NCBI GenBank assembly: GCA_018433585.1
Contig: JAHDQW010000002.1
Coordinates: 124,001 to 188,000 of the forward strand
Direction: 5' to 3'
Source of the DNA: Candidatus Praeruminimicrobium purgamenti
GTDB lineage: Bacteria; Elusimicrobiota; Endomicrobiia; Endomicrobiales; Endomicrobiaceae
Length of the DNA: 64,000 nucleotides
This document shows positions 18,097 to 64,000 of the stretch, piece after piece. Within the stretch, counting starts at the first letter, position 1. Each line of letters starts with the position of its first letter. The notes under the pieces are model-generated. The model saw only the letters and a list, made by a program, of their open reading frames with translations, was not told where the DNA came from and searched no databases. The translations under genes were made by a program, and so were the position numbers.

Positions 18097-18110
18097 ATTC
18101 ATTCCATTAA

Positions 18111-19899: not shown

Positions 19900-19916
19900 T
19901 TTATAGATCCTTGTAA

Positions 19917-20657: not shown

Positions 20658-20670
20658 CTTATGTCTCCGC

Positions 20671-22125
20671 TTATATTATTTTTTTAAATTCTTTTATTCC
20701 TTTTGAAATTTGAGTTTCAATATTTTCTATTTCTTTTAAAATTACTTTGGGAGCAGGATACTTTTCTGCAGCATATTCAATTTTTTTGTATTTGTTAATT
20801 GAAAGGTCATAATCATTATCTATTATTTCTTTTTTAGGAACAAAAAATGACTTATCTGTCCTTTTTCTTTTGTCTTCTAATTGTAAATTATGGAATCTTG
20901 AAATAATATCAGGAATATCGTTATCTTTTATTTCATCTCGTTTATCATCTAAAGTGTAACCGTCTGCCTGCATATCATAAAACCAAACTTTGTCCGTTCC
21001 GCCGTGTCCTGTTTTTGTAAATATTAAAACAGCTGTGGATACACCAGCATAAGGTTTAAAAACACCAGACGGCATAGAAATAACTGCCTCAAGTCTGTTG
21101 TTATCAATTATCTCTTTTCTGATAGATTTATGAGCATTAGAAGAACCAAATAATACTCCGTCCGGAACAATTGATGCACATCTACCGCCAGTTTTCAACA
21201 TTCTTAAAAATAAAACTAAAAATAATAATTCTGTTTTTTTAGTTTTTGCAATTTTTAAAATATCTGTAGATACTGTATCATAGTCCAAACTGCCTTTAAA
21301 AGGCGGATTTGCTAAAATAACATTAAATTTATTTGTATCAGTGTTTTTATCCGACAGACTGTCTTTATAAAAAATATTCGGATTTTCTATGCCGTGAGTC
21401 ATCATATTCATAGCGCCGATTCTTAACATTGTCCTGTCCATATCATAACCATAAAACATATCGTTGTTATAATGTTTTTTATTTTCTTTGTTATGAAATA
21501 TTTTTTCAAAATATTTTTCTTTTAAATATTCGCCTGCCGATACTAAAAATCCGCTTGTTCCGCATGAAGGGTCGCAAATGATATCTGTCGGCTTTGGAGC
21601 AATAAGTTCTACCATCATACGGATAATATGCCTTGGCGTTCTGAACTGCCCGTTTGTTCCGGAATTAGAGAGTTTTGATAAAAGATATTCGTATATATCG
21701 CCTTTTGAGTCTTTATTTTGCCATTCAATATCATCCATAGCCGTAATAATTTTTTCAAGTAACTGCGGTGTAGGTATTTTAAATATGGCGTCGCTCATAT
21801 ATTTTGCATAAGTACTGTTTTTGTCTGAATGTAAATTTTTTATAAACGGAAAAACTTTTTCTTGAACGATTTGATACATTTTATTAGCAGGTAAATCTCT
21901 AAATACTGACCATTTATATTGCTGTTGGTCTTTAGAGAACATAGATTCATACTTTGTTTTAAGAATGGTGCTTTCTTTTTGTCTTGTTTTATCTAAGGTG
22001 TCCAAATCTTTAATAAAAATAAGATATGTTATTTGTTCTATAACATCAAGAGGATTTGTAATACCACCTGTCCAAAACATTTCCCAAAGCTTATCAATCC
22101 TATTTTTAAATTCCCCTGTTACCAT
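20671..22125 (-). CDS. hsdM: Type I restriction-modification DNA methyltransferase HsdM
   Basis: 484 residues. The N-terminal HsdM helical bundle (NPLDVIEQITYLIFIKDLD) is followed by the N6-adenine methyltransferase domain with AdoMet motif I DPSCGTSGFLV (about 185) and catalytic NPPF (about 273). It methylates adenine in the HsdS-specified site to protect host DNA. It is the first large gene of the island, in the order hsdM, unknown, hsdS, DUF6602-like, PIN-GNAT fusion, ASCH, hsdR. Confidence 0.94.
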   Translation of the reverse strand: MVTGEFKNRIDKLWEMFWTGGITNPLDVIEQITYLIFIKDLDTLDKTRQKESTILKTKYESMFSKDQQQYKWSVFRDLPANKMYQIVQEKVFPFIKNLHSDKNSTYAKYMSDAIFKIPTPQLLEKIITAMDDIEWQNKDSKGDIYEYLLSKLSNSGTNGQFRTPRHIIRMMVELIAPKPTDIICDPSCGTSGFLVSAGEYLKEKYFEKIFHNKENKKHYNNDMFYGYDMDRTMLRIGAMNMMTHGIENPNIFYKDSLSDKNTDTNKFNVILANPPFKGSLDYDTVSTDILKIAKTKKTELLFLVLFLRMLKTGGRCASIVPDGVLFGSSNAHKSIRKEIIDNNRLEAVISMPSGVFKPYAGVSTAVLIFTKTGHGGTDKVWFYDMQADGYTLDDKRDEIKDNDIPDIISRFHNLQLEDKRKRTDKSFFVPKKEIIDNDYDLSINKYKKIEYAAEKYPAPKVILKEIENIETQISKGIKEFKKII

Positions 22126-23597: not shown

Positions 23598-23948
23598 TTA
23601 CAGTTTAACTACCAGTTTGCTCTTATCGCCGGTTGCCAGTTCAAACTCATTTGTATTCTTTAATGCTCCGAATTTACATGAAATAACGCACTGGCTGCAG
23701 AATATGCATCTGTCTAGATGAAGAGTGGCTTCAAACTGTTTATCGGCTATTTTAGTGATAAAAATAGCTTTGGCAGGGCAGTTTCTGACGCACATATTGC
23801 ACCCTACGCACTTTTCTTTTATGTATGCAACTTTGCCGTTGTAATGTTTATGTATTTCTCTTTTTTTAAAAGGATATGACGAAGTAGCAGGCTTTTTAAA
23901 AAGCGAGCTGATAGTTTCTGCCAACATTTTGCCGAGTTTTTTGCTCAT
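23598..23948 (-). CDS. Complex I-like hydrogenase, ferredoxin subunit (NuoI-like)
   Basis: 116 residues. Two [4Fe-4S] motifs: CVGCNMCVRNCP and CIFCSQCVISC. This is the relay subunit that passes electrons from ferredoxin to the small subunit, like NuoI/HycF/EchF. It is the last gene of the eleven-gene operon and overlaps the NuoH-like gene by 4 bp. Confidence 0.88.
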   Translation of the reverse strand: MSKKLGKMLAETISSLFKKPATSSYPFKKREIHKHYNGKVAYIKEKCVGCNMCVRNCPAKAIFITKIADKQFEATLHLDRCIFCSQCVISCKFGALKNTNEFELATGDKSKLVVKL

Positions 23949-24886
23949 TTTAACACCGCTGCCTTTATAATAACGTTTATTAATATCTGCACCAACGCTA
24001 TAGGCGCAAGATATTTCCAGCAGAAGCTTAACATCTGGTCGGTTCTTAATCTTGCGAAAATAGTTCTTATTACCGCAAGCAAGAAGATTATAAACGTTAC
24101 TTTTATTATGTAAATTATAAAATTAAAAATAAAGAAACTTCCGTAACCGAAAGGAAGAAATACTGCAGCTACAAGAGAAGCTCCGGCTATCGTCTGCATA
24201 TTCATGGCAAGCCTGAAATAAGCGAACAAAGGACCTGTATATTCTGTAAAAGAACCTGCGACTATTTCAGTTTCGGCTTCAGGAATATCAAAAGGAACTT
24301 TTTCAAGTTTCCCCTGCAAAGTCACAATTGCAACGGCAAAAGCTATAAAGTTTACAAGCCACAAACTGCCGCCGGCATTATAAAAATTAATCACTTCTGT
24401 AAATGACCATGAACTTGCAAGAATAGTAGGTGCAAGAACAGCCATAAACAAAGGAACTTCATAAGAAAAAAGCTGCGTTAAAACTCTCATAGAACCTATA
24501 AGAGCATACTGAGATCTTGAATACCAGCCTGCCAAACTGTACGTTAACGTAGGTATTGTAAGCATATATAAAACAAATATAATGTCTCCGTTAAAAGACA
24601 TTATAGATTCTTTACGCCATAAAGGAATATATAAGTAAGCTATTATTACGGAGCTGCAGGCAACCAAAGGCAAAGCTTTGAAAATTTTTCTGTCCGCATT
24701 TTTAGGAATAATAAGCTCTTTTGCCAAAAGTTTAATAAAGTCGGCGACAGGCTGAAACCAAGGAGGCCCCATTCTGTTCTGCATTTTTGCATAAACTTTT
24801 CTGTCGAAATATTCTCCTATCATAGATAAAACAACCAAGAATAATATTCCGGGAAAAACTAAAATTTTTAATAGCAATAAAATCAT
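23945..24886 (-). CDS. Complex I-like hydrogenase, membrane anchor subunit (NuoH-like)
   Basis: 313 residues with about eight membrane helices. QNRMGPPWFQPVADFIKLLAKE is the conserved NuoH/EchB/HycD loop that contacts the large subunit, and EIVAGSFTEYTGPLFAYF is the acidic loop near the ion pathway. It anchors the peripheral arm and links redox chemistry to ion movement. It is separated by 1 nt from the large-subunit gene. Confidence 0.9.
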   Translation of the reverse strand: MILLLLKILVFPGILFLVVLSMIGEYFDRKVYAKMQNRMGPPWFQPVADFIKLLAKELIIPKNADRKIFKALPLVACSSVIIAYLYIPLWRKESIMSFNGDIIFVLYMLTIPTLTYSLAGWYSRSQYALIGSMRVLTQLFSYEVPLFMAVLAPTILASSWSFTEVINFYNAGGSLWLVNFIAFAVAIVTLQGKLEKVPFDIPEAETEIVAGSFTEYTGPLFAYFRLAMNMQTIAGASLVAAVFLPFGYGSFFIFNFIIYIIKVTFIIFLLAVIRTIFARLRTDQMLSFCWKYLAPIALVQILINVIIKAAVLK

Positions 24887-24887
24887 G

Positions 24888-26108
24888 TTATTTATCCAAC
24901 TTTTTCAGTTTAGTAAAATCCACGCCTCTGTTTTTCTTATACCAGTCAATAGAAAACTCTCTTAACGTTTTCCAGTCCATTCTGTCTTCTTTTGCCGTTG
25001 AAACATTGTTAACGGCGACAATCATTCTGTCTGTGCATGAAAAACAAGGGTCTATTGCGGCTATGACTATAGGAACGTCCGCAAGATAACCGTCTTCCAG
25101 CATCTTTGCGACAGACTGAACGTTTGCAAGCGTAGGAGCTCTTAATTTGACTCTTTCAGGCTTATCCGTTCCGTTAGATTTAACGAAATGAATATCTTCG
25201 CCTCTAGGAGCCTCGTATCTGCTTACCGCTTCTCCGGCAGGAATAAGTCTCGGAGCAACTACCGACAACGGCCCCTGAGGAAGCTTTTTTAGTAATTGTC
25301 TTATTATTGAATATGACTGCATTAATTCTTTAACTCTGACGACTGCTCTTCCGTAAACGTCGCAATGATCGTCCGTAATAACTTCAAAATCAACTTCGCC
25401 GTAAGCAGCATAAGGATCGTCTTTTCTGATATCTCTTTTTATGCCTGATGCTCTTCCGGTAGGTCCGACTGCGCCGTATTTTAACGCATCTTCATGCGAA
25501 ATATATCCGACTTTTGAAAGCCTTTCTATCAAAGTAACTTCTTCCGTAGCCACCTGAACGTAATATTTTGTTCTTTCTTCCAAAATGTCAACGGCTTTTA
25601 ATATCTGGTCTTTCTCTTCTTCGGAGACATCTTTTCTTACTCCGCCGATAACGTTAACCGCGTAATTAACTCTGTTGCCGGTAAGAAGCGCAAGAAGATC
25701 CATAACTATTTCTCTGTCTCTCCACGAATACATAAGAAGAGTGTCAAAACCTATTTCATGAGCCGCAACGCCGAGCCATAAAAGATGGCTGTGTATTCTT
25801 TCCAATTCTCCGATTAAAGACCTTATATAAGCGGCTCTTGGAGGAATTTTAAGATTTGCGAGCTCTTCTATCGCCTGTATAAAACACGTTGAATGAGAAT
25901 GCGAACAGATGCCGCAGACTCTTTCAACCAAATAAACGCTTTGCAAAAATGTTCTTTCTTCACAAGCTTTTTCTATACCTCTGTGATTGTAACCGACTTT
26001 AACCAAAATATCGGCTACTCTTTCCCCTTTAAGAGTTACGTCAAAGCTTGCCGGTTCTTTAAGAGCCGGATGTTGAGGACCTATAGGAATGACAACTTTT
26101 TTACTCAT
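24888..26108 (-). CDS. Group 4 [NiFe]-hydrogenase large subunit (NuoD-like)
   Basis: 406 residues. All four Ni-binding cysteines are present: ERVCGICSHSHS (about 63-66) near the N-terminus and DPCFSCTDR (about 363-366) near the C-terminus. True NuoD proteins lack these, so this is a hydrogenase rather than complex I. The sequence continues about 40 residues after the second CxxC without the His-terminated peptide cleaved in other groups, as in Ech-like and Mbh-like forms. The expected reaction is H2 formation from ferredoxin, or the reverse, coupled to ion transport. It overlaps the NuoC-like gene by 8 bp. Confidence 0.92.
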   Translation of the reverse strand: MSKKVVIPIGPQHPALKEPASFDVTLKGERVADILVKVGYNHRGIEKACEERTFLQSVYLVERVCGICSHSHSTCFIQAIEELANLKIPPRAAYIRSLIGELERIHSHLLWLGVAAHEIGFDTLLMYSWRDREIVMDLLALLTGNRVNYAVNVIGGVRKDVSEEEKDQILKAVDILEERTKYYVQVATEEVTLIERLSKVGYISHEDALKYGAVGPTGRASGIKRDIRKDDPYAAYGEVDFEVITDDHCDVYGRAVVRVKELMQSYSIIRQLLKKLPQGPLSVVAPRLIPAGEAVSRYEAPRGEDIHFVKSNGTDKPERVKLRAPTLANVQSVAKMLEDGYLADVPIVIAAIDPCFSCTDRMIVAVNNVSTAKEDRMDWKTLREFSIDWYKKNRGVDFTKLKKLDK

Positions 26109-26604
26109 TTTTACCGCCGTCTGTCTCTTTTTCTGTTTTTTTGTCCAACATTGAAATATTCCAGTCTTTTCTCAAAGGATACTGTCCCTTAGGCCAATTG
26201 TCAGGCAAAGGGTATCTTCTCCCTTGTATAAGACCCGTAACATTTATTCCAAGCAAATCTTCAAGTTCTCTTTCCGAAAGTTCGGCAGCCGGAAACAAAT
26301 CCGTTATTGTCGGAACTGACGGATTTTCTCTTTCTGCGTTAACTTTTATGCTTAGCACGACTCCGTCTTCGCTGGACATATGATAAATAACCTGAAATTT
26401 GTCTTTCAAATCTAAGCCTGAAATTGTTGAAAGAATTGAAAAGCCTTCTTTTAAAACAAAACTTTCAAAACTTTCCCTGAAATATTTAGGATCAACCTCA
26501 ACCCAGACTCTTCTTTCTCTCTGGGCGGAGACATCCAATATATAAGACGAATACGTTTCTTTAAGCTTTTGCGCTATTTCATTTGCCGTTTTCATTTTTT
26601 TCAT
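26101..26604 (-). CDS. Complex I-like hydrogenase, NuoC-like subunit
   Basis: 167 residues. The 30-kDa-subunit fold is recognised by FQVIYHMSS, the acidic ITDLFPAAELSERELEDLLGI segment and YPLPDNWPKGQYPLRKDW, which is the family signature. It is a structural subunit of the peripheral arm. It overlaps the genes on both sides (26 bp with the small-subunit gene and 8 bp with the large-subunit gene), as is usual in tightly coupled operons. Confidence 0.87.
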   Translation of the reverse strand: MKKMKTANEIAQKLKETYSSYILDVSAQRERRVWVEVDPKYFRESFESFVLKEGFSILSTISGLDLKDKFQVIYHMSSEDGVVLSIKVNAERENPSVPTITDLFPAAELSERELEDLLGINVTGLIQGRRYPLPDNWPKGQYPLRKDWNISMLDKKTEKETDGGKNE

Positions 26605-27049
26605 CCGCTTGTTTTAATGAATCTTCGTATGATTTCAAGAGTTTTACAACTCCGTCTATAATCGCATCAGGACTTGCCGGACACCCCGGAATATACATAG
26701 AAACAGGAACCGCCTGGTCAACGCCGGAAACAACGCTGTAACAGCCGTCGATTGCTCCGCCGGAACATGCGCAGGCTCCTATCGCAATTACAAATTTAGG
26801 TTCAGGCATCTGTTCATATATTCTTACAAGTCTGTCTTTTAACTGTCTTGTTACCGGACCGGAACAAAGCAAAACGTCCGCATGTCTCGGTGTTCCCCTC
26901 AAAATAGAGCCGAATCTTTCGATGTCGTAAGTAGGAGTAAGAGCCGCAACAACTTCAATGTCGCAGCCGTTGCAGGCGCCGGCGTTAAAATGTATTACCC
27001 AAGGAGATTTTAATCTTGCCCAATTAATAACTTTATCGATTATTTTCAT
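26579..27049 (-). CDS. [NiFe]-hydrogenase small subunit (NuoB-like)
   Basis: 156 residues with the proximal [4Fe-4S] cluster ligands GACNGCDIE (two Cys), ACACSGG and PGCPASPD. The CNGCD form is that of group 4 hydrogenases; complex I NuoB has adjacent cysteines instead. It sits at the interface with the large subunit. It overlaps the NuoA-like gene by 4 bp. Confidence 0.9.
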   Translation of the reverse strand: MKIIDKVINWARLKSPWVIHFNAGACNGCDIEVVAALTPTYDIERFGSILRGTPRHADVLLCSGPVTRQLKDRLVRIYEQMPEPKFVIAIGACACSGGAIDGCYSVVSGVDQAVPVSMYIPGCPASPDAIIDGVVKLLKSYEDSLKQADEKNENGK

Positions 27050-27393
27050 TTTTCGTCCCTAAATAAAATCGGAATACTGACAAAAGATATTATTAAAAAC
27101 AATAAAACTATCAAAAGACTTCCGTCAATATGTATAGGAAGAGTAGCTATAAGCAAAACGACTACGTGCATAATCGTAAAGAAAAAAGCAAAAGGAAAAA
27201 ACTGGCTGTAGTTAGGTTTTCTTCTTTCTTCTATAGGTTCTTCGCCGCAGGCATAACTTTTTAATTTTCCTTCAGTATCGGCAACTGAACTTTTATAGGA
27301 AAGTCTGCCGAGCAAAAAGAAAATTATCAATATTACCAGAGATACGAGAACAAATATTACAGGAGGTAATGAAACAAATTTTACGATATCCAT
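27046..27393 (-). CDS. Complex I-like hydrogenase, NuoA-like subunit
   Basis: 115 residues with three membrane helices. The loop KLKSYACGEEPIEER resembles the Cys-containing NuoA loop (YECG), which in complex I lies near the quinone cavity. FFPFAFFFTIMHVVVLLI is the second helix. NuoA-like subunits are absent from Ech but present in complex I-like hydrogenases, so this supports a complex intermediate between Mbh/Ech and complex I. Confidence 0.85.
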   Translation of the reverse strand: MDIVKFVSLPPVIFVLVSLVILIIFFLLGRLSYKSSVADTEGKLKSYACGEEPIEERRKPNYSQFFPFAFFFTIMHVVVLLIATLPIHIDGSLLIVLLFLIISFVSIPILFRDEK

Positions 27394-27394
27394 T

Positions 27395-27715
27395 TTATCC
27401 CTTTAAATTTCTTATATTTCTTGTGTCTAACGAATCATGTTTTTTTACTATATTAAAAATAAGCCCCGCAGAAATAGTAAGAATGACTACTTCAACAACA
27501 ATCATTATAATAATAAATGACTGGGCCATTTCCGGTCTTCCGTTAAAATACCCGCACGAAGCAAGCAAAAGCGTTACGCCTTTTGTCATTATTTCTATAC
27601 CGATTATAGTCGCTATTATGTTTCTGGTAGTCATAATGGCATATATTCCGACTAAAAACAATACCGGAGTGGCTATAATGTACAGTTTAAAAAGCAATAT
27701 ATTTTCTACGCTCAT
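27395..27715 (-). CDS. Complex I-like hydrogenase, NuoK/MnhC-like subunit
   Basis: 106 residues with three membrane helices. IGIEIMTKGVTLLLAS carries the conserved Glu of the first NuoK/MrpC helix motif, and IIIMIVVEVVILTISAGL the second membrane Glu. These residues form part of the E-channel for ion translocation. One nt separates it from the NuoA-like gene. Confidence 0.87.
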   Translation of the reverse strand: MSVENILLFKLYIIATPVLFLVGIYAIMTTRNIIATIIGIEIMTKGVTLLLASCGYFNGRPEMAQSFIIIMIVVEVVILTISAGLIFNIVKKHDSLDTRNIRNLKG

Positions 27716-28227
27716 TTTTTATCCTTATTTTTATCTTTTTTAAACAAAACGACAACTGCAAACAAACCAGTTAAAAGAATAAGCGCCTGTCCTATCAAAT
27801 CGACATGTCTTAAATTCCAAATATTGTCTCTTGTGTCTATTGATTCCTGAACATTCTGCATCAACGGAACAAAAGTTATATTTTTACTGTCCAGCATATA
27901 CAGTGAAAAACCGCATACCAATACCAAAAGAACAAGTAAAACCATTTTTTTCATCATTGAAACAGAGTTTACTTTTCTTTGTTTTTCGTCAGGAGGAAGA
28001 GTAAGGCTGATAACGCTGATGAAAATAACAGTTATAAGTCCTGAACAAACGGACAATTCAAATATACCCGCCAGAGGACATGACAAAAGGAATAATGATA
28101 TAGAAACCAGCATACTTACTATACCTAAAATAATAGCTCCTCTTATTACTCTTGCATAAGAAACTGCAAAAATCGAAGATATTATTATAAGCGCCAACAA
28201 GATAATGTGAATATAAATACTGTCCAA
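27712..28227 (-). CDS. Complex I-like hydrogenase, NuoJ/MbhD-like subunit
   Basis: 171 residues with five membrane helices. The ELSVCSGLITVIFISVISLT segment resembles the third-helix region of NuoJ and the related MbhD-type subunits, where a pi-bulge is found in complex I. Its end overlaps the NuoK-like gene by 4 bp. Weak similarity is normal for this subunit; position supports the call. Confidence 0.78.
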   Translation of the reverse strand: MDSIYIHIILLALIIISSIFAVSYARVIRGAIILGIVSMLVSISLFLLSCPLAGIFELSVCSGLITVIFISVISLTLPPDEKQRKVNSVSMMKKMVLLVLLVLVCGFSLYMLDSKNITFVPLMQNVQESIDTRDNIWNLRHVDLIGQALILLTGLFAVVVLFKKDKNKDKK

Positions 28228-28236
28228 GATATCTCC

Positions 28237-29661
28237 TTAAAAAGATACTGCCGAATTTATCAAACCGTTTAAAACAAACGGGAACAACAAACCGACGACA
28301 ACCGTAATAGCACACAACAAAATAGAAACGAAAGTTATCGCAAGCGGAGCTTCTTTAACATTTTCAAAACCTTCTTTTAATCTGCCGAAAAATACTTTTT
28401 TCTGCATAATTAAGAAATACGTCATAGTTAAAATGCTTGCAAGAATAGCTATAACTGCGTAAACTTTTAAATCTGCAGTCCATAATGCAAGTATTATCAT
28501 AAGCTTACTCCAAAACCCTGACAACGGAGGAATTCCTGCCGTCGACAAAAATGCAATAACCGAAGTTGTTGAAGTTACAGGCATTTTAGAAGCAAGTCCG
28601 CCCATTTCGCTCATATCGGAAACATTAACCTGTTTTTCCAAAGCGGCAGAATTTACAAACAGCAAAGATTTAAAAACAGAATGGTTAAACAAATGAAATA
28701 TAGCGGCAGCAACGCCGAAAGTAGTGCCTGCGCCGAAACCCAAAACAATATAGCCTACCTGGCTTATGCTTGAATATGCAAGCATTCTTTTAAAATTGTT
28801 TTGATTGATTGCGGCAAAAGCGCCTAATACTATAGATATTGAAGCAAAAATTAAAAGGATTGACTGTATTGCAGTGTTGAATCCGAAAACGGAATAGAAT
28901 AATCTTATGAGCGTATAAATACCCGTTGTCTTTGTAACCATACCTGCCAAATACACCGACACGGGAGCCGGAGCCGCAAGATAAGAGTCAGGAAGCCATC
29001 CGTGAAAAGGCATTACGCCTCCCTTTATAAACAAACCTACTATAAAGAGAACGACGGCAGCCGTCACCAGAGAGTTGCCTCCGTACTGCTGGTACATATT
29101 TGAAACTGTTACAAAATCCGTACCGCCGGCAACTAAAAACAGTATCGCTATAGAGCTGAGCATCATAACGGTAGCAACCGAAGACATAACAAGATATTTA
29201 AAGCTTGCTTCCAACGCATTTTTATCTTTGTTAATTGCGATTAAAATATATGAGGTCGCCGCTATAACTTCTATAAATACATAAACCGAGAATATATCTC
29301 TTACAAAAAATAAACCGTTCATTCCGGCAAGAGAAAGAAGAATTAAATTTACAAAGTTAAATTGTTTTCTGTCGGAATCTTCCATTGCGTATAAAACCAA
29401 AATTGACGCAAAGGCTACAATTGCCGACGTAAGAAGCATAAGCCTTGAAATTCCGTCGCACTGAAAATCCAGCATAAAATAACTTACAAGATTTTGCACT
29501 GCGGGACATGTCGCATTGACCGGAAGGAAAAATGAAAAAGCCTGCACTATGCAAAATAAACTTGCAATAAAAACAGCAATTTTACCCGAAATTCTATAAA
29601 ACGGTAAATTGAAAAACAACACTAAAAATAATGGTATCAAAACTGCCAATGAAAAAGACAT
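28237..29661 (-). CDS. Antiporter-like subunit (NuoN/MrpD-like)
   Basis: 474 residues with about fourteen membrane helices. FSVYVFIEVIAATSYILIA contains the conserved Glu of helix 5, IKGGVMPFHGWLPDSYLAAPAPVS the Lys and half-channel loop of helix 7, and FNHSVFKSLLF the Lys of helix 8. This is one of three ion-pump-like subunits in the operon. It belongs to the same family as the Mrp Na+/H+ antiporter subunits; whether H+ or Na+ is moved cannot be told. Confidence 0.88.
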   Translation of the reverse strand: MSFSLAVLIPLFLVLFFNLPFYRISGKIAVFIASLFCIVQAFSFFLPVNATCPAVQNLVSYFMLDFQCDGISRLMLLTSAIVAFASILVLYAMEDSDRKQFNFVNLILLSLAGMNGLFFVRDIFSVYVFIEVIAATSYILIAINKDKNALEASFKYLVMSSVATVMMLSSIAILFLVAGGTDFVTVSNMYQQYGGNSLVTAAVVLFIVGLFIKGGVMPFHGWLPDSYLAAPAPVSVYLAGMVTKTTGIYTLIRLFYSVFGFNTAIQSILLIFASISIVLGAFAAINQNNFKRMLAYSSISQVGYIVLGFGAGTTFGVAAAIFHLFNHSVFKSLLFVNSAALEKQVNVSDMSEMGGLASKMPVTSTTSVIAFLSTAGIPPLSGFWSKLMIILALWTADLKVYAVIAILASILTMTYFLIMQKKVFFGRLKEGFENVKEAPLAITFVSILLCAITVVVGLLFPFVLNGLINSAVSF

Positions 29662-29670
29662 TTTACCTGC

Positions 29671-31473
29671 CTAAAAAATTATAAAAATAAATATTATGCC
29701 TAATATTACCCACAAAAGATAAACAGATATATTTCCAGTATGGGCTTTTTTTACAGATTCCGAAACAAAATTGACGCTTCCCGGAACTGTCACATCATAA
29801 AAATAATTTAACCCTTTATCTATGTTAAACATTGCATTTGAAAATTTTGTCACGGCTTTAATAAAAATTTCGTAAGGGTCAAATTTAATATTTTCATTAA
29901 GCTTATCAATTTTTATTTTATCTAAAGCAGCGGCAATAAAACCAAGTCCGTCATTTCTTTTTTTGCACGTATACACATTGTTTATAAAAGCCAGTATAAG
30001 AACTAATACTGAAACCGATATAAGAATAACCGTAATAATAACGGAATGCTCATTTTCAACCTGCCCTATCACATTAGAAACCAGCGTATGAGGGACTTTA
30101 TTAAATATACCGAACATTAAACATGCCAACGCTGAAATAATAGTCGGTATAAACATAAATACGGGAACTTCTTTTTCCTGTATTATTTTTTCTTTAGGTT
30201 TTGAATAAAATAATTTTATGCCCCAATTTAATATTGCAACGGCAGAAAGAAGAGAGCCGATTGAAAGGCAAACGTAAAAAGCCCAGTTTACAGATAAAGC
30301 GCTTGCATATATCATTTCTTTTGAAAAGAAAGCAAAGAAAAAAGGAACTCCCGCAAAAGCAGCTCCGGCTAAAACAAAGCTCATAAACGTATAAGGCATT
30401 GTCTGTCTCAAATTGCTCTTAACTCCGGATATTTCGGTTGAACCTTCCGCTTTTTCTATATTTCCCGCCACAAAAAACAAACAGGTTTTATAAACTATGT
30501 GCGCCGTCATATGAAACAAGGCTGCAACCATGCCGAAGACGGACAAAGAAGCAACGGCGACAATCATATAACCGGCTTGTCCTATGCTTGCATAAGAAAG
30601 CATTTTTTTAAAATCTTTCTGGTAAACGGCAAACATGTTTGCAACAAGCAGAGTTATTACTCCGAATATCATTGCATATATGCTTATATCAGAACCGATT
30701 TCTATGACAAACAAATCTTTAACTATTCTTATCAAAAGGTAAATGCTTAAAACTTTTTCTACGGCGGTTACCATAAAAACCATAAACGGCAACGGAGCTT
30801 TTACGGAAGCATCAGGTATCCAGCTGTGAAAAGGCATTGCGCCGGCTTTTGCCGCCGCTCCTATAAACATCATTATAAAAGCGAATACTGCTCCCGGCTG
30901 AGATATATCTACGTTAGTCTGAGATATCATAAAAGAACCGCCGACTGCGCATATCAGCATAACTCCGAACATAAGGCAAAGATCAGCTACAGACGAGATA
31001 ATAAGAGTTTTCAAAGCAGTCCAAACAGGCTTGTCTTTGCCTGCTGCAATCATACCGAACATAGGAATCATAAGTGCTTCCCAGAAAAGAAGCAGAACTA
31101 TAAAATTATCGGTTAACAAAACGCCGTTTGCAAAAGACAGAGCCAAAAGCATAAATGCGTAAAACATAAAAGTATTTTTTTCTTTTTTCATTGAAGCTAC
31201 GGCATATACGGCTGCCAAAAGAGCCGCAGCGCCGAGAACTATCATCATGAAAGAATTTAAACCGTAATATCTGAAATATAAATCCAAACGGAATAACAAA
31301 TGGGAATTAAACAAAATTTCCCTGCCGTAAAAAAACACGGAGAAAAAGCTGTTTACGGACACTGCCGCAAGAAACATAATTATTTTGACAATATTGTACT
31401 TTGAAGGAAGAAAGTACAAAAGAACGCCTGCCAATAAAGGAATAATAATAAAAACGTTTAACAATATGTTCAT
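29671..31473 (-). CDS. Antiporter-like subunit with C-terminal extension (NuoL-like)
   Basis: 600 residues. The core pump has FWEALMIPMFGMI, AKAGAMPFHSWIPDASVKAPLP and FHMTAHIVYKTCLFF with the conserved Glu, Lys and Lys. About 120 extra residues at the end contain FDPYEIFIKA followed by an amphipathic stretch and a last membrane helix, similar to the lateral helix arm of NuoL. It is the longest of the three pump-like subunits. Confidence 0.86.
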   Translation of the reverse strand: MNILLNVFIIIPLLAGVLLYFLPSKYNIVKIIMFLAAVSVNSFFSVFFYGREILFNSHLLFRLDLYFRYYGLNSFMMIVLGAAALLAAVYAVASMKKEKNTFMFYAFMLLALSFANGVLLTDNFIVLLLFWEALMIPMFGMIAAGKDKPVWTALKTLIISSVADLCLMFGVMLICAVGGSFMISQTNVDISQPGAVFAFIMMFIGAAAKAGAMPFHSWIPDASVKAPLPFMVFMVTAVEKVLSIYLLIRIVKDLFVIEIGSDISIYAMIFGVITLLVANMFAVYQKDFKKMLSYASIGQAGYMIVAVASLSVFGMVAALFHMTAHIVYKTCLFFVAGNIEKAEGSTEISGVKSNLRQTMPYTFMSFVLAGAAFAGVPFFFAFFSKEMIYASALSVNWAFYVCLSIGSLLSAVAILNWGIKLFYSKPKEKIIQEKEVPVFMFIPTIISALACLMFGIFNKVPHTLVSNVIGQVENEHSVIITVILISVSVLVLILAFINNVYTCKKRNDGLGFIAAALDKIKIDKLNENIKFDPYEIFIKAVTKFSNAMFNIDKGLNYFYDVTVPGSVNFVSESVKKAHTGNISVYLLWVILGIIFIFIIF

Positions 31474-31475
31474 AA

Positions 31476-32930
31476 TTAAATAGTTATCATCTGGTTTGCA
31501 GCTAAATTGGCAATTGTAAAGATATCACCGAAAAACAAACCAAATCCTAAAGACAAAACAGCCAAAATTATTACGCTGAACACCATAGGAGAAAATACTT
31601 TCTCTTTAGGCAGTAATTTAAAGTCGCCTCTTTCTTCACCGAGGAAAATCTTTGTAAAGAGCCTTACTATATAAAGAACAGTAAAAGCCGCGCATATTAT
31701 GAAAGCAAAACCGGTAAATACGTTGCCGTCCATAACGCTGCCTATTATAACCAAAAATTTACTAAAAAACCCCGCAAAAGGAGGAATGCCCATAACAGAC
31801 AAAGCGCAGCACGCAAAAGCTACCGCCGTAAAAGGCATATATTTCAAAAGTCCGCCCATTTTATCCAAATCTTTCGTATGTACTTTATGTTCTATAATAC
31901 CGGCGCACAAAAACAAACCTGCTTTTGCCAGACCGTGTATCAATATAAAAAGCATTGCTCCGGCAAAAGCGACTTTCCCGCCGGAAACGAATCCAAGAAA
32001 AATAAAAGCAAGCTGGCTTATCGTCGAGAAAGCTATTACTCTTTTAATGTCTTTTTCAACGAAAGCGATACCGCCTGAAACAAAAGCGCTTACGGCTATT
32101 ACAACCAATATTGCAGTTCTTAAAGAATCAGAAGGTATTATAACGAAACTGAAAAGCCTTCCGTACACATAAACGCCGATTTTAACAAGCACCGCGGCAT
32201 GAAGCAATGCCGTAACAGGCGAAGGAGCTATACCTGCATCTGCAAGCCATGAATGCAAAGGAAAAGTCGCCGATTTTGTAAAAATACCTATTAATATAAA
32301 TATTATTGCAAGATCAACAATTCCGCCCGTAATACCTGCATTGGCTATAATGTCCAAATCAAAGGAACCGGCAGTTTCTGCTATTATCAAGAAACCGACA
32401 AGCATAAACAAAGCGCCTGCAGCCGTTAACAAGAAAGCTTTATTGGCTCTTCTTACATACTCTTTTTCTCTGAAAAAGCCTATAAGTCTCCAGGAAGCAA
32501 GAGCCGTCATTTCCCAGAATATGTAAATAAATATTAAGTTTGCCGAGAAAATTATTCCCATCATGGAACCTAAAAACAGAACCACAATAAAATAATATTC
32601 GTTTTGATTTTCGTAATGTTTAATATACTCGAAAGAATAAATCAATATAACCGTGCTTACCAAAACGGAAGCCAAAGCGGTAAAAGTTGCAAATATATCA
32701 GCCTGTAAAATAAAATTTATGCCTAAAGGAAATTCAAAAACGTATTTAACAGTATTGCCGGATATAACTTCAGGAAGTAAAATACATAAAAAAACCATTG
32801 GAACAAGCATCAGCAGCAAAGCGGCAAAATTTCTAATTGAAACAGAAAATTTTGCTACCGCCGGCAATGTTGTTGACAAAAGTACTGGAACAAGAACTAT
32901 AAGCAGTAATAAAATATCATAAGACATCAA
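31476..32930 (-). CDS. Antiporter-like subunit, first gene of the hydrogenase operon (NuoL/MnhA-like)
   Basis: 484 residues with about fourteen membrane helices. IYIFWEMTALASWRLIGF (Glu of helix 5), TKSATFPLHSWLADAGIAPSPVTALLHAA (Lys of helix 7 and the family signature) and HGLAKAGLFLCAG are present. It lacks the lateral-helix extension. As the promoter-proximal gene it follows the promoter at 32973-33001. Confidence 0.87.
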   Translation of the reverse strand: MMSYDILLLLIVLVPVLLSTTLPAVAKFSVSIRNFAALLLMLVPMVFLCILLPEVISGNTVKYVFEFPLGINFILQADIFATFTALASVLVSTVILIYSFEYIKHYENQNEYYFIVVLFLGSMMGIIFSANLIFIYIFWEMTALASWRLIGFFREKEYVRRANKAFLLTAAGALFMLVGFLIIAETAGSFDLDIIANAGITGGIVDLAIIFILIGIFTKSATFPLHSWLADAGIAPSPVTALLHAAVLVKIGVYVYGRLFSFVIIPSDSLRTAILVVIAVSAFVSGGIAFVEKDIKRVIAFSTISQLAFIFLGFVSGGKVAFAGAMLFILIHGLAKAGLFLCAGIIEHKVHTKDLDKMGGLLKYMPFTAVAFACCALSVMGIPPFAGFFSKFLVIIGSVMDGNVFTGFAFIICAAFTVLYIVRLFTKIFLGEERGDFKLLPKEKVFSPMVFSVIILAVLSLGFGLFFGDIFTIANLAANQMITI

Positions 32931-57425: not shown

Positions 57426-60400
57426 TTATGCCGCCGACAATATGTTTCTTACGCTTTCAACATTTATATTTATTGATTTTTCCAAAACGGCGTTATCAAT
57501 TAAATCCGATACAGGCAATATTCCTATTTCGCCGTTATCAACCCTGCTGAAGACTGAAAGATTAGCGTTAAACTTTTTCATAACTACAGGGTCGGAATTT
57601 ATTCTTTCAATAAGAAGAGAAATTATCCGCCCGTCTTTTATTAAACTGCCGTATTTTCCGTCAACAATAAACACGCTTCTGCCTTCATCTGCTTTTTTCA
57701 AATATACGGATATCGCCTCATCCGTATTTTCAGGGTTAGCAATATTTACGAAAACTTCGGACTCCGCAGAAACATCCCCGCTTACAACGGTTATAAGCTG
57801 CTTTAAATCCGGTTTAACAAAAGCTTTTTTATCTTTGCCGTTTTTCTTTGAAGACGTGTCAAAAGTCGTTATGGCTCTTCTCTGAAGTATATATATATTA
57901 CCGTCTTTTATGCCGAATTCGACATCTATAGGATATCCCGAGTCTTTTTCAAGAATTCTTATGATTTCGGTCAGTCTTTTAACTGTTTCGGCATTTAACG
58001 CCCTTGCTTTGACTCCCTGTTTAACCGCTTCTTTTGCCGTTCCGTCTTCCGTAGGAACTATTTTGAATTGTTTATCGGCTACAGAATACTCTATAATCTC
58101 TCCGTTATTTATATCTACATTTATCGTGTCAGGAGTCAGAGCTCCGGAAACAAGGCCCTCTCCCAAACCGTAAACGACTTCTATCGTTTCATTTCCGTAT
58201 TTATTTCTGCTGAAAACAACTCCTGCTTTTTCAACATTTACCATTTCCTGAATCAAAACAGCAGGCTTTACTACCTGACCGCTTTTTATCATATAACTTA
58301 TACATCTTTCCGAAAAGAATGATTTCCAGCATTCTTTTATATTTTCATAAACATTTTCAGCGCTGACATTCAGTTTCGTTTCGCCCATACCGGCAAAGGC
58401 GTTGCTTGATCCGTCTTCCCCGACTCCTGAAGACCTTACTGAATATTTAACTCCTGATACTGCAAATTCAGAGATTTTATTTTTTAAGAAATTCTCAAAT
58501 TCGAGTCTTGAAGGAGACACGTCTTTCTCATCAATAAGATTTAATATTTTTTCGGCTATTGCAGCCGCAGCTGCATTATCTTTATCTTTTACGGCTTTTT
58601 CAAAATCTTTAAGGATCTTCGAATCGCCGTCCCTGCCGACCAAATTAAACAATAACTCCAAGACATCTATGCTTACGCCCATACCTTCGGGAACATAAAC
58701 GCCCTTTTCATCCTTCAAAAGCCTGTACATTTTTGCAAGTTCGGTCGTTTTTGACCCGAATTTGTTTACATCCTCTTCATGTATCCCGTCAAAAGTGGTA
58801 ATTTCCTTATTAACTCCTACAACTTCGTCTTTCATTAAATAACCTTTCGTTTTAATATCCAAAAGAGCCAGCAGTTGTTTAAGTTCTCTGCTCATTGATT
58901 TCAAATCGGCTCTCTCTTCGCTTTCAGGAACAAAGAAATCATAAACGGTAGCCGTATTAATAATATTTATTATTTTTCTTATGTCATTTATGCCTAGCTT
59001 TTCTTTTTCAAGATACATTCTTGCATCAGATATAAGCAGATTAAGATAAATATAAAGCCTGTCTTTGATTTCTTTTTCAAGAGACAAAATCTCTTCTTTT
59101 AACTTTTCCAAATCGTCTATTTTCTCGGTTGTCTTTATCAATTCAAATTTTTTGCTTAACATTTCAATAATACCGTAAGCGATATTTACGTTATCTATCG
59201 ATTTTACATTTTCCATTCCCTCTGTTATATTTCTTATTTTATCCTGTATATATCCCTGGTTTAATTCCTTAATTTTAGCTCTTACAGATTCAGGCATTTC
59301 GTTGCTGAATAAAGCAAAAAGAACCTGTTTTAAATTAGAATTCCCGATAGACTGAAAATAGATATATTCGACAAGTCTTCTTATATCTTTATTGTCTTCA
59401 TTTTTCTTCATAAAGTCAATTATCAAACGTTCATCGTTCTTTCTTATGCATTCCTGCAGTTCATCAAGCAGTTTTGTATCTATATCGTTAAATAAAAGAA
59501 CCGTGCCTGTTTCACCGTTCATAAGAACTCTGAAACCTTCTTTTAAAAGCAGATTTTTTGCTTTTATCTTTTGCAGTTGGAATCCGTTTACGGTTTCTAT
59601 ATCGCCTTCCGAAAGAAAATATTGTATTTCGGCTTCATTATCAACCCATGCAGCGCCGTTTACTACGACAGACGGCTTTTTAAATTCTCTTGTAGTAATC
59701 GCCGCATGACTTAAAATTCCGCCGCCGGTGGTAATTATTCCTTTGGAAGTTTTTATTGCTTCAACATCGTCAGGAGTAGTGTAAGGAACAACCAAAATGT
59801 TATCTTCCTTTACATTCTTTCTGTCAAAAGTAATATTACCGGCCACGTATATCCCGTTTCCGTCAGACGTTGACGTACAGCGGACTTCAGGGCTGTCTAT
59901 AGACTGAATTTTACGTTCCAGAAGGTTTTTTATCATCTGTCTTTCCCGTGTCCCGACCCATTCCTGATTTGAAATATCGTATCCTTCTCCAGACAACAGA
60001 GATATTAATTCATCGCTGGTAAGCTTCCTGTGTCCGTTATCAGTAACAAGCTCTACCATCGCATATTTCATTCTTCTTGTATAAGGGTTCATTACTCCCT
60101 TTACAAATAATTTATCTCCGTTTACCAGTTTCATCACGCCCGTAACAGCTATAAGACTGCCGACATATCCCAGCGTTCTGTAAGAGAATTCATATCTGTT
60201 GAGAAGATTTACTATTCTGCTTTGTTTTGAAGTTTCTGAAATATTATTGCTTATGTCAGTCATTATTGAAGGCATAATGTCGTAATTTTCATTCTTTCTG
60301 AGTTTTCCGTTCTCATCAATAATAATTCTTCCTTCAATATAAGCCCTTTCTATCGTTTTGTTGAAATATTTATCAATTTTAGGCTGCTCTATATTGTAAC

Positions 60401-63400
60401 CTTTTTCCCTTGAAGGAATCTTTTCCAATCCGAGATAAGACAATACGGAATTATAAAACTGAACCATATTACCTCTAGGTTTTTCTATTCTTTTGGTCAT
60501 ATTCTGACCTTTTTCACCGAAACAGTCTGTAGGAGTAGGCGCATATCCGACCCATATTTCACCGTCCATAAATTTTTCGACAAGATTATCAAAAGTCTGC
60601 AAATAAGAATTATAGCTGTATTGATCGTATAATTCTCCCAAATCCCAGTCAAGCATATTTGAATATTTAAACAGCAAAATAACTTTTGACGCCACATCAA
60701 CCATATCAGTAGTATCATTAAGCCCGTAGTCTTTATTCAAAACAGCCTTTAAACCGCATACTCCGGAACTGCTTCCGTAATCGACTTTCATATCAGCTTC
60801 GACATTAAAACCGAATTTTTCAAGTATAGTTTTAAAATATCTTACTCTTTCGGCATTACCGGTATTTCTTCCGCCTTCATGATAATATATCGTTATGCCT
60901 CTGTCACTGTCGCCGAAGTTCATAAATACATCGACGCTGTGAACGAACAATCTGGTAGTCCAGACGAGAATATCGTCTTTGCACATAAAATCTTCTATTT
61001 TATATCTGCCGCTTCCTCCGACAGGATCCGGAAGTTTTTTTGTAGCAAGAGTTGATATTAAACTGACAATATCCTTGTTTATTTTATTGTCTGACAAATC
61101 ATAAGCAAGAATAGACGTATTATCCTGCGTAGCCGTTATTGTCTTTATATGTCTGTTTGCAACGCCTACGTCACCTATGCTTTTTTTGAAATCATATATT
61201 GAAGTCTGGTGAACGGCGTTGATAAGAGTGTGTATTTCTTTTATCTCGCCAATTGTATCAAAATCCCATTTTGAAATTACTGTCTGTTTTCTGATTGAAT
61301 CTTCATTGATTTTTTCCATTGAAGACAATATATTTTCCAAAGCATGCTGCGCCTGTCTGCCGTGAATTTCATCGATTTTTATAAATCCGTCTATCATTTT
61401 TTTAAGACAGTCAACGATATTGTTAAAATCCTTCTCAGACATAGACTGGTTCAAATTTTCGAACATTCCCAGAGCAAGAACATTGTAATTAAGTATTTCC
61501 TGAAGAGTATCAAATCTCTCAACAAGTTTCCTGACGTTTTCGTCAGACATATTTGTTTCTCCGTCAGTTTTTAAATAAACCGGAGGTTTTTGGACTATTT
61601 CGGCGCCGTTTAAGACTTCGTCCGGAAGATACTTAATAAGCGAAGTAAATTCATAAACGTCTTTAGCGTCAGCCCTTGAATATCTTGAACTGCCGAATAT
61701 ATTTGATATATAAGCTTCTGCAGGCTTAAGGAATGAAGAAATTCCAAGAGCTTTTATACTTTCGTTTATTTTTTCTGAATCTAAAATTTTGCCGTCGTTA
61801 ATTCTGCTGTACAACGAAGATGAAGCCAAAGCAGCCAAAGCAAAAACAGCCTTTTTTCTTTCCTCTGCGCTTAAGGCTGTATTTCCTGCCGTCGCATATA
61901 ATTTTTTTATTACGCCTAAAACTATTTTTGCGCCGTTGTCTCCGCTTTCATACAGATTTCCGTATGTTCTTACAATATTAAGATTATCAGTTAGCGCTGC
62001 AAACATATCGACTAATTTATCCGAATATATTATATCCGAATCTTTATAAGGAACCTGGCATACAACATTTGCCAATTTATTTTTCTTTACGGCGTTAAAT
62101 AAAATACCGAATGTTTTATCTGAAAGATTTATTCCTTCTACACTCTCATACTGATTTGTATTAAATAAGAATCTGTAAACCGACATATTTCTAGGAGAAG
62201 CTTCAGATAAACGAGTGAAAATATCAAGACAGACTCTTTCTCTTTCAGCATATTCTTTTTTCTCTCCGGAATCTTTTTTAACCGGTTCATAAATATTTAG
62301 AGCTATTTTAGACAGATATTCAACCGCAAGACCGTTAGTTTCAGACCTGTCGATATTATCTGTTTTTTCGGCTGCAAAAAGCAGGAACGAGATTATCCGG
62401 TCAAAAGCTTTCATATTGCGGGTTATATTATATGATTCAAGCGCAATTTTATTTATTTTTGTAAGAATATTTTTATCAAGAGCTTCATTTTTTGCGGTAA
62501 TCTGTTCGCAAAGAGATAAAATACCGTCCAATATCAAAGTCCTTTCTTCTGCGCTTAACGAGGTGTTTAATGCAAGATCATTCATAGCTGAATTAAGCTG
62601 ATACTCAAGAAGAGGAAGAGTAGAAACATTTATTTTATCCGACAGAAAATAAAATTCTTTCAAATATGAATCCATCTTTTCGGCGGCATCGGAATCTGAT
62701 AATTTCATTTTTTTGAATTTTTCGATTACGCTGTCCAGCAATTCTTTCAGTTCCGGATCCGCTCCCGGCTCAGAAACTGTAATATAATAAGATTTCAGAC
62801 CTTCATACTTATATTCAGACAAAGCATCTTTGATTGAATACGGAATATTTTTATAACTGACAATATTTCTTTGCTGCAAAAATCTTATTATGTCTGTTGC
62901 TTTACTGCGGCTGATTGGATAAATCTGTTTAATCATATCGCCGCAAACTCTTATAATATCCAAATATTCATTTTCTTGTTCAACAGGAAGCAGATTTAAA
63001 ATATAATTCAAAACAGATTCGTCCGTTCCTCTTAAATTTACAAAAGGAATAAACGGCATAATATACTGCATCAAATAATTTCTATAAATCCTTGACGAGT
63101 TTGAAGAGTCTTCTTTTATAATGTCAAATAAGATATTAATCTGATCACTTATCATTTCATATCTGTCAAATGCGTTTTCAGGAAGATTTGAAAGAATATT
63201 TTTTACTTTAATTATCGTTTCAAGATTTCTGTCTCTTGTTATGCCGTTTAAGTCGGATATCAATTTATCGACAAGTTTCTGATCTATTTCTTTTTTTTCT
63301 TCTTTTATACCGGAAAAAGATTCGTTTACGGTCAATGTCGTTATAGGTCTTCTTTGCAGTATATACACTTCATTATTGCCGTCTATTGCAAACTCTATGT

Positions 63401-64000
63401 CCACAGGATAACCTGAATTTTTTTCAAGTTCAAAAGCTGCAGAAGATAACCTTCTTATCATTGATTCGTCTATAACTCTTTCTATCTGTTCGTCCCTGGT
63501 CAATCTTATCTGGGCAGTTCCTCCGCCTTTTATTTCAGTAATCTTTTTCATATTATCAAGAGCTCTCAGATAAGTTATCTTATTGTCTTTCAGACTTAAA
63601 GTTATATGGTCCGGATTTATTCTTCCAGATACAAGCCCCTCTCCCAGTCCCCATACCACTTCTTCTGTCAAATTACCGTTTTCGTCTCTTGTAAAAATTA
63701 CTCCGGCTTTTGCGACAGAAGGAACCATTTCCTGAATCAAAACAGCCGGCATGACTATATGTCTGCTGTCTGTCATATAATCTATGCTTCGATATGAATA
63801 AAAAGATTCCCATGACTTTTTTATGTTTTTATATATATCTGTAAAATTAACGTTCAGCGATGTTTCTCCCATACCGGCAAAAGCGTATGACGTCCCGTCC
63901 TCACCTACTCCGGAAGACCTGACAGCATACATCTTCCCTTCAACAGCAAGCGATTTGACATAATTTTCCAGTTTTTCGCTGTCATTGGTTTGAATTATAT
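57426..64000 (-). CDS. Giant protein with two PPDK/PEP-synthase ATP-binding domains and a swivelling His domain (5' end outside)
   Basis: Open to the window end: codons upstream of the ATG at 63932 read KLENYVKSLAVEGK, similar to the stretch before the second domain, so more than 2,190 residues. Domain 1 (nt 63930-63330) has YAVRSSGVGEDGTSYAF, VLIQEMV and VVWGLGEGLVSG, like the PEP synthase/PPDK ATP-binding domain. A long middle part without a recognised fold follows. The swivelling domain (nt about 59790-59580) has TGGGILSHAAITTRE with the phosphocarrier His. Domain 2 (nt 58480-57850) repeats domain 1 (YSVRSSGVGEDGSSNAF). No PEP-binding TIM barrel is seen, so it may be a rifampin-phosphotransferase-like or new dikinase. 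Confidence 0.75.
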   Translation of the reverse strand, partial: IIQTNDSEKLENYVKSLAVEGKMYAVRSSGVGEDGTSYAFAGMGETSLNVNFTDIYKNIKKSWESFYSYRSIDYMTDSRHIVMPAVLIQEMVPSVAKAGVIFTRDENGNLTEEVVWGLGEGLVSGRINPDHITLSLKDNKITYLRALDNMKKITEIKGGGTAQIRLTRDEQIERVIDESMIRRLSSAAFELEKNSGYPVDIEFAIDGNNEVYILQRRPITTLTVNESFSGIKEEKKEIDQKLVDKLISDLNGITRDRNLETIIKVKNILSNLPENAFDRYEMISDQINILFDIIKEDSSNSSRIYRNYLMQYIMPFIPFVNLRGTDESVLNYILNLLPVEQENEYLDIIRVCGDMIKQIYPISRSKATDIIRFLQQRNIVSYKNIPYSIKDALSEYKYEGLKSYYITVSEPGADPELKELLDSVIEKFKKMKLSDSDAAEKMDSYLKEFYFLSDKINVSTLPLLEYQLNSAMNDLALNTSLSAEERTLILDGILSLCEQITAKNEALDKNILTKINKIALESYNITRNMKAFDRIISFLLFAAEKTDNIDRSETNGLAVEYLSKIALNIYEPVKKDSGEKKEYAERERVCLDIFTRLSEASPRNMSVYRFLFNTNQYESVEGINLSDKTFGILFNAVKKNKLANVVCQVPYKDSDIIYSDKLVDMFAALTDNLNIVRTYGNLYESGDNGAKIVLGVIKKLYATAGNTALSAEERKKAVFALAALASSSLYSRINDGKILDSEKINESIKALGISSFLKPAEAYISNIFGSSRYSRADAKDVYEFTSLIKYLPDEVLNGAEIVQKPPVYLKTDGETNMSDENVRKLVERFDTLQEILNYNVLALGMFENLNQSMSEKDFNNIVDCLKKMIDGFIKIDEIHGRQAQHALENILSSMEKINEDSIRKQTVISKWDFDTIGEIKEIHTLINAVHQTSIYDFKKSIGDVGVANRHIKTITATQDNTSILAYDLSDNKINKDIVSLISTLATKKLPDPVGGSGRYKIEDFMCKDDILVWTTRLFVHSVDVFMNFGDSDRGITIYYHEGGRNTGNAERVRYFKTILEKFGFNVEADMKVDYGSSSGVCGLKAVLNKDYGLNDTTDMVDVASKVILLFKYSNMLDWDLGELYDQYSYNSYLQTFDNLVEKFMDGEIWVGYAPTPTDCFGEKGQNMTKRIEKPRGNMVQFYNSVLSYLGLEKIPSREKGYNIEQPKIDKYFNKTIERAYIEGRIIIDENGKLRKNENYDIMPSIMTDISNNISETSKQSRIVNLLNRYEFSYRTLGYVGSLIAVTGVMKLVNGDKLFVKGVMNPYTRRMKYAMVELVTDNGHRKLTSDELISLLSGEGYDISNQEWVGTRERQMIKNLLERKIQSIDSPEVRCTSTSDGNGIYVAGNITFDRKNVKEDNILVVPYTTPDDVEAIKTSKGIITTGGGILSHAAITTREFKKPSVVVNGAAWVDNEAEIQYFLSEGDIETVNGFQLQKIKAKNLLLKEGFRVLMNGETGTVLLFNDIDTKLLDELQECIRKNDERLIIDFMKKNEDNKDIRRLVEYIYFQSIGNSNLKQVLFALFSNEMPESVRAKIKELNQGYIQDKIRNITEGMENVKSIDNVNIAYGIIEMLSKKFELIKTTEKIDDLEKLKEEILSLEKEIKDRLYIYLNLLISDARMYLEKEKLGINDIRKIINIINTATVYDFFVPESEERADLKSMSRELKQLLALLDIKTKGYLMKDEVVGVNKEITTFDGIHEEDVNKFGSKTTELAKMYRLLKDEKGVYVPEGMGVSIDVLELLFNLVGRDGDSKILKDFEKAVKDKDNAAAAAIAEKILNLIDEKDVSPSRLEFENFLKNKISEFAVSGVKYSVRSSGVGEDGSSNAFAGMGETKLNVSAENVYENIKECWKSFFSERCISYMIKSGQVVKPAVLIQEMVNVEKAGVVFSRNKYGNETIEVVYGLGEGLVSGALTPDTINVDINNGEIIEYSVADKQFKIVPTEDGTAKEAVKQGVKARALNAETVKRLTEIIRILEKDSGYPIDVEFGIKDGNIYILQRRAITTFDTSSKKNGKDKKAFVKPDLKQLITVVSGDVSAESEVFVNIANPENTDEAISVYLKKADEGRSVFIVDGKYGSLIKDGRIISLLIERINSDPVVMKKFNANLSVFSRVDNGEIGILPVSDLIDNAVLEKSININVESVRNILSAA

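What the first reader, a model, noticed from the sequence alone, without database searches (positions are those of the whole stretch)
57426..64000. Giant PPDK-like protein with duplicated ATP-binding domains and one His domain
Two copies of the same ATP-grasp-type domain (YxVRSSGVGEDGxS...AGMGET; VLIQEMV; GLGEGLVSG) flank a long region with a single swivelling phospho-His domain (GGGILSHAA). No PEP/pyruvate TIM barrel is visible, and about 1,100 residues in the middle have no recognised fold. The upstream sequence hints that the pattern continues beyond the window. Two kinase domains per carrier domain could mean a multi-step phosphotransfer or a repeat-built giant enzyme.
Basis: partly seen in the sequence, partly recalled or inferred. 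Interest (0 to 1): 0.6.

Follow-up and report, generated by a model that had tools for sequence, protein, structure and literature searches.

The report
Exported giant double-dikinase protein
The window holds the tail half of a 4,694-residue protein, from a little-studied Endomicrobiaceae bacterium, that carries two complete ATP-driven phosphate-transfer engines behind an export signal and belongs to a large family of giant proteins sharing the same start and the same last few residues but carrying different enzymes in between.

Summary
The in-window observation is right, but "two kinases, one His domain" is a window-edge effect. The full gene (window 57426 to 71510) encodes 4,694 aa: signal-peptide-like start, a "QDLHxH" domain with the TIKI/ChaN residue pattern, a CPBP (Rce1-like) membrane domain, then two diverged copies (37% identity over 1,307 columns) of one unit: X domain, phospho-His swivel domain, helical linker, ATP-grasp. 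The ratio is 2:2. There is no PEP/pyruvate barrel. The catalytic His is present in 26/26 His-domain copies aligned and the ATP-grasp motifs are kept, so the first half-reaction looks intact. The X domain has no Pfam or PDB relative, yet N, H, H, R and G are invariant in 25/25 sequences; it is the likely phosphate-acceptor site (inferred). The same unit sits behind a signal peptide, without the QDLH head, in another Elusimicrobiota family. The QDLH head begins many giant proteins (59 of 248 genomes). All 18 stop-ended members examined in this order end in a conserved tail, L(S/A/G/M)(A/S)A. Searching the own genome for that tail found only giant ORFs, four of them new. Substrate, topology and role are unproven.

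The parts
57426..64000 (-). 3' part of the giant gene; the full CDS runs to about 71510 (outside the window; L005:1426-15510, protein P0001, 4,694 aa)
63309..64000 (-). ATP-grasp (PPDK_N) of unit 1, aa 2410-2734, cut by the window edge; its X (1607-2058) and His (2072-2179) domains lie outside the window
61656..63233 (-). region between the units, aa 2760-3285, mostly faster-evolving, no known domain
59871..61313 (-). X domain of unit 2, aa 3400-3880, candidate acceptor/second active site; invariant N3431, H3434, H3524, R3555, G3784
59541..59873 (-). phospho-His swivel domain (PEP-utilisers) of unit 2, aa 3880-3990, catalytic His 3935 (codon 59706-59708) in GGGILSHAAITTRE
58941..59543 (-). helical linker of unit 2, aa 3990-4190, between the His and ATP-grasp domains
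57816..58943 (-). ATP-grasp (PPDK_N) of unit 2, aa 4190-4565, with K4254, R4359, E4531, Q4543, R4545 kept
57426..57452 (-). family-wide C-terminal tail VRNILSAA and stop codon

Best explanation
The gene encodes an exported, membrane-associated giant with two complete dikinase units. In each unit the ATP-grasp domain transfers a phosphate from ATP to its own swivel His (ATP to AMP + Pi + His~P; the intact machinery is shown, the reaction is inferred from the families). The His domain then swings to the preceding X domain and phosphorylates a substrate bound there (inferred from position and the invariant N/H/H/R; substrate unknown). Chemically it works like rifampin phosphotransferase or PEP synthase with a new acceptor domain and another domain order. 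The Sec-type signal and the QDLH and CPBP domains place the units beyond the cytoplasmic membrane or in a delivered product (inferred). It is one member of an Elusimicrobiota family whose members keep both ends (signal peptide + QDLH head; L-x-A/S-A tail) and swap the enzymes between them. The conserved ends most likely serve a common export, processing or sorting route (inferred).
For: Domain hits and order; the two units are homologous over 1,307 columns; catalytic His 26/26 and ATP-grasp motifs kept; weak model of His-linker-ATP-grasp still matches RPH and PEPS best (E 1.5e-10); purifying selection against G001, pN 0.19, pS 0.69; X invariants in 25/25; signal-peptide-like starts; the same unit behind a signal peptide without QDLH head in family f21 of the phylum; CPBP motif residues invariant in nine copies, all nine matching PF02517 weakly; head in 59 of 248 genomes; tail in 18/18 members, and a tail search that found four new giants, two with readable heads.
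Against: No ATP is expected outside the cytoplasm. No signal-peptide or topology predictor was available; the CPBP loop charge fits the positive-inside rule badly if the units are outside. Structure models are poor, so X as acceptor rests on conservation and position only. Substrate unknown. No expression data.
Confidence: 0.55

Rival explanations
1. A membrane-anchored enzyme facing the cytoplasm: the N-terminal hydrophobic stretch and the CPBP domain act as anchors and the dikinase units modify a lipid or envelope precursor from inside, with easy access to ATP.
For: Needs ATP; payloads of the family are cytosol-type enzymes; Lys-rich loop in CPBP would prefer the inside.
Against: Signal-peptide-like starts in all members with a readable N-terminus and in the separate single-unit proteins that have no CPBP domain; an apparently even number of CPBP helices would not bring the units back inside.
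Confidence: 0.22
2. A multi-effector protein delivered into other cells (prey, competitor or host), where ATP is available; comparable in logic to MARTX toxins, which are giant, multi-domain, exported and can carry a TIKI-family effector domain.
For: Export signals with ATP- or nucleotide-using payloads; TIKI-like residue pattern in the head; payload swapping between paralogues; giants in related phyla have been linked to predation.
Against: No translocation, RTX or autoprocessing cysteine-protease domain found by Pfam; orthologue kept at one chromosomal place next to ychF in several genera, unlike fast-swapping toxins; no immunity partner recognised.
Confidence: 0.18
3. A structural or scaffold giant in which the dikinase units are inactive relics.
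For: Giants of related phyla are often proposed to be surface or adhesive proteins (PMC10066038).
Against: The catalytic residues are among the best conserved positions in the units.
Confidence: 0.05
4. An ordinary PEP synthase or PPDK, or an assembly artefact.
For: NCBIfam and PDB name the ATP-grasp part PEP synthase.
Against: All NCBIfam scores are far below the curated cut-offs; no barrel in the full protein; a separate PPDK exists; same architecture in independent genomes.
Confidence: 0.01

Closest known systems
Rifampin phosphotransferase (RPH; PDB 5HV1, 5FBS)
   Same: ATP-grasp plus phospho-His swivel domain with a non-barrel acceptor domain; best PDB sequence and fold match
   Different: RPH is a single set of three domains without export signal; here the order is X-His-linker-ATP-grasp, twice, in a giant, and X is not similar to the RIF-binding domain by profile search
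PEP synthase / pyruvate phosphate dikinase
   Same: Homologous ATP-grasp and His domains
   Different: No PEP/pyruvate barrel; domain order differs; own genome has a separate PPDK
Plant glucan, water dikinase (GWD)
   Same: His domain placed before a C-terminal ATP-grasp (from memory, not tested)
   Different: GWD has starch-binding modules and is plastidial (from memory); no such module found here
TIKI / ChaN / erythromycin esterase superfamily (QDLH head)
   Same: Invariant D-x-H, Glu at H+28, Arg, His, like the E-x-H, E(+28), R, H of RRSP
   Different: First acidic residue is Asp, large insertions; no Pfam match to a TIKI family and hhalign with thin templates not significant
Giant proteins known to be enriched in Elusimicrobiota and Omnitrophota (PMC11573180, PMC10066038, PMC12057145)
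   Same: Very long, poorly annotated ORFs in the same or sister phyla
   Different: No shared head, tail or dikinase unit is described in the passages read of those three papers; only searched passages were read

Membership tests
PEP synthase / PPDK | PPDK_N ATP-grasp domain | tested here: met
   PF01326 E 9.7e-100, 2 stretches
PEP synthase / PPDK | phospho-His swivel domain with catalytic His | tested here: met
   PF00391 E 4.7e-28, 2 stretches; His 26/26
PEP synthase / PPDK | C-terminal PEP/pyruvate TIM barrel | tested here: not met
   no barrel domain in the full protein
PEP synthase / PPDK | order ATP-grasp, His, barrel | tested here: not met
   order is X, His, linker, ATP-grasp
Rifampin phosphotransferase | equivalog-level similarity | tested here: not met
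   NF041857 297 bits against cut-off 999
Rifampin phosphotransferase | RIF-binding domain | tested here: not met
   X profile finds no RPH chain in PDB
Rifampin phosphotransferase | ATP to AMP + Pi + phosphorylated substrate via phospho-His | not testable with these tools
   needs biochemistry
Glucan, water dikinase | His domain before C-terminal ATP-grasp | tested here: met
   order; the GWD order itself is from memory
Glucan, water dikinase | starch-binding modules | tested here: not met
   no such Pfam domain in the full protein
CPBP / Rce1-like intramembrane protease | EExxxR, FxxxH, HxxxN motifs | tested here: met
   invariant in nine copies
CPBP / Rce1-like intramembrane protease | PF02517 above gathering score | tested here: inconclusive
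   9/9 match, best 1.3e-5; own copy 18.1 bits against 22.4, G007 copy 26 bits
TIKI superfamily (head) | 2His/2Glu-type residues with H to E spacing of 28 | tested here: met
   D-x-H, E(+28), R, H invariant in 11/11; E+28 in 6 of 7 own paralogues, the seventh off by one
TIKI superfamily (head) | profile or fold similarity | tested here: inconclusive
MARTX toxin | RTX repeats, cysteine-protease autoprocessing domain | tested here: not met
   no such Pfam domain in the full protein
Head-and-tail giant family (defined here) | signal peptide + QDLH head and L(S/A/G/M)(A/S)A tail | tested here: met
   both ends present in P0001

The most novel reading that the evidence does not exclude
Elusimicrobiota possess an undescribed two-ended export or processing system for giant proteins: a signal peptide plus TIKI-like head at the N-terminus and a short L-x-A/S-A tail at the C-terminus mark many giants per genome, whose interchangeable payloads include ATP-dependent dikinases that work outside the producing cell's cytoplasm.
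Probability: 0.35. Interest if true: 0.88.

Novelty: new variant of a known kind. Interest (0 to 1): 0.7.

Why it matters
Known PPDK/PEPS/RPH-type dikinases are, to my knowledge, intracellular three-domain enzymes. A signal-peptide-bearing, duplicated form with an unknown acceptor domain points to new substrates and raises the question of where its ATP comes from. The shared head and tail define a sequence family that takes up a sizeable part of this genome (at least 11 members, roughly 90 kb or 5%) and make the largely undescribed giant proteins of Elusimicrobiota recognisable by two short signatures, so their localisation and processing can be tested directly.

Tried and rejected
AlphaFold on X+His and His+linker+ATP-grasp: low confidence because the permitted alignments held only three sequences; PDB Foldseek of the first gave nothing at E <= 0.001, of the second only RPH/PEPS. 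Profile searches of head, X and CPBP against PDB: no significant hit. Head against ChaN and TraB by hhalign: not significant. X and head in viral contigs, and a piece of unit 2 (X, His, linker) in plasmids and phages: none. Genome-contig scan: only one locus, so taxonomy rests on that record title. ssrA-degron reading of the tail: the own tmRNA tag ends MPIAA, similar only in its AA end, so left open. Paper searches for GWD domain order found nothing. Assembly artefact and ordinary PEP synthase were considered and rejected (see rivals).

Full report
OBSERVATION. The window's minus-strand ORF 57426..63998 runs off the window end. The window lies at G000:C12:124001-188000. Fetching the contig gave a 4,708-codon ORF from a TTG; with the ATG that begins a signal-peptide-like sequence the protein is 4,694 aa, window 57426 to 71510. 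Pfam finds PPDK_N twice (9.7e-100) and PEP-utilisers twice (4.7e-28) and nothing else above cut-off. So the 'two kinases, one His' pattern is created by the window edge.

ANATOMY. Comparing the two halves gives one long repeat, aa 1489-2734 against 3285-4558, 36.6% identity over 1,307 alignment columns. With homologues the protein reads: signal-peptide-like N-terminus; 'QDLHxH' head (37-560); a middle part (560-850); CPBP-like membrane domain (850-1010); a further region (1010-1490); unit 1: X 1607-2058, His 2072-2179, linker 2181-2379, ATP-grasp 2410-2734; a region between the units, 2760-3285; unit 2: X 3400-3880, His 3880-3990, linker 3990-4190, ATP-grasp 4190-4565; C-terminal part and tail. 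Related giants carry one or two such units in the stretches read; G007 has two CPBP domains, one before each unit.

ACTIVITY SIGNS. The catalytic His is present in 26/26 aligned His domains, and the GxK, VRSS, DxE and QxR motifs of the ATP-grasp are kept in nearly all copies; both units align with E. coli PpsA at these places. In rifampin phosphotransferase Lys22 and Arg117 are needed for activity (PMC4844700; equivalence inferred, not tested). Against the related genome G001, pN is 0.19 and pS 0.69 over 4,173 codons; synonymous sites are near saturation, so the ratio of about 0.1 is approximate. X2, His2 and ATP-grasp 2 are among the best conserved parts (77-80% identity). The X domain has no Pfam or PDB relative, but across 25 sequences, including a distant family, N3431, H3434, H3524, R3555 and G3784 never change. 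That looks like an active or binding site; I infer the second half-reaction there. A normal PPDK is encoded separately.

EXPORT. Members with a readable N-terminus start with Lys/Arg residues, a hydrophobic stretch and usually an AxA-like site (judged by eye and hydropathy, no predictor). In another family of the phylum (f21), single-unit proteins of 1,771-2,104 aa have X-His-spacer-ATP-grasp behind a signal peptide, and the head and CPBP models do not match them. Two architectures keeping a signal peptide support export. The CPBP domain seems to have four helices, which would leave the units on the same side as the head, but its charged loop fits the positive-inside rule badly. An ATP-using enzyme outside the cytoplasm is the main unsolved point; a cytoplasm-facing anchor or delivery into other cells remain rivals.

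HEAD FAMILY. A profile of the head finds it in 59 of 248 Elusimicrobiota genomes, with 39, 14 and 23 match segments in three fully scored distant genomes, some of them pieces of one ORF, in ORFs from a few hundred to over 12,000 aa. Its invariant D-x-H, Glu at H+28, Arg and His match the catalytic pattern reported for the TIKI-family endopeptidase RRSP (PMC6254334); profile comparison did not confirm it. Payloads in the own genome include RamC-like, HD, NUDIX, weak SecA-like and dikinase domains; elsewhere LMW-phosphatase, lipase and LPD3.

TAIL. All 18 stop-ended family members examined (some with N-termini beyond their contig or fetched stretch) end in a short conserved sequence such as VRNILSAA, IKGILAAA, MKAMLAAA or IKTMLMSA. 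Of 57 other own-genome ORFs, one ends in AA, and it is the end of another giant, over 6,000 aa. A DNA pattern for the tail hits the own genome 16 times (8 for the reversed control): 8 hits end long ORFs, the other 8 lie in open frames of 6-47 aa. Four of the 8 were not known to me as complete giants before; the two with a readable N-terminus carry signal peptide and QDLH, the other two run off a contig end (the N-terminus of one of the two had been seen). This independently supports the head-and-tail family. In three distant genomes all 10 family ORFs read to their end finish in Ala, 6 of them in -QA. Own-genome members found sum to about 30,000 aa, roughly 5% of 1.86 Mb (my sum; some are incomplete).

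NEIGHBOURS. ychF lies downstream in five other genomes checked (G001, G007, G010, G013, G019), with ribF after it in four (G001, G007, G010, G019); a 186-aa membrane protein with relatives in three (G007, G010, G019) lies directly upstream. So the locus is old and vertically inherited within the family.

LITERATURE. Giant proteins in Elusimicrobiota and Omnitrophota are documented (PMC11573180, PMC10066038, PMC12057145), with roles in adhesion or predation proposed for relatives. In the passages I read, none describes this unit, head or tail; bioRxiv and most subscription papers were not searchable, so 'undescribed' means undescribed in what I could search.

Noticed in passing
window 57426-57452 and the ends of giants in G000 C7, C8, C13 and in 9 other genomes: Conserved C-terminal tail L(S/A/G/M)(A/S)A on giants with different payloads; the own-genome tmRNA tag ends MPIAA.
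   Followed up: partly
L005:15545-16102 (just upstream of the gene, outside the window): A 186-aa membrane protein directly upstream, conserved at 29-36% identity in G007, G010 and G019; a possible partner.
   Followed up: partly
L127:2-13797: Two single-unit exported dikinase genes side by side in G141.
   Followed up: no
L096:2-18037 (G000 contig C8 start): A giant of over 6,000 aa with near-identical repeats (FVNKTNKTAEDYG) at the contig edge, ending in the family tail.
   Followed up: no
L033:12620-13941: ychF in the G001 MAG is split into two ORFs, probably a sequencing or assembly frameshift.
   Followed up: no
window 12819-22125: Looks like a type I restriction-modification locus (helicase/nuclease-like, specificity and methylase ORFs; by eye).
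   Followed up: no
window 23945-32930: Looks like a complex I/membrane-hydrogenase-like operon (by eye).
   Followed up: no
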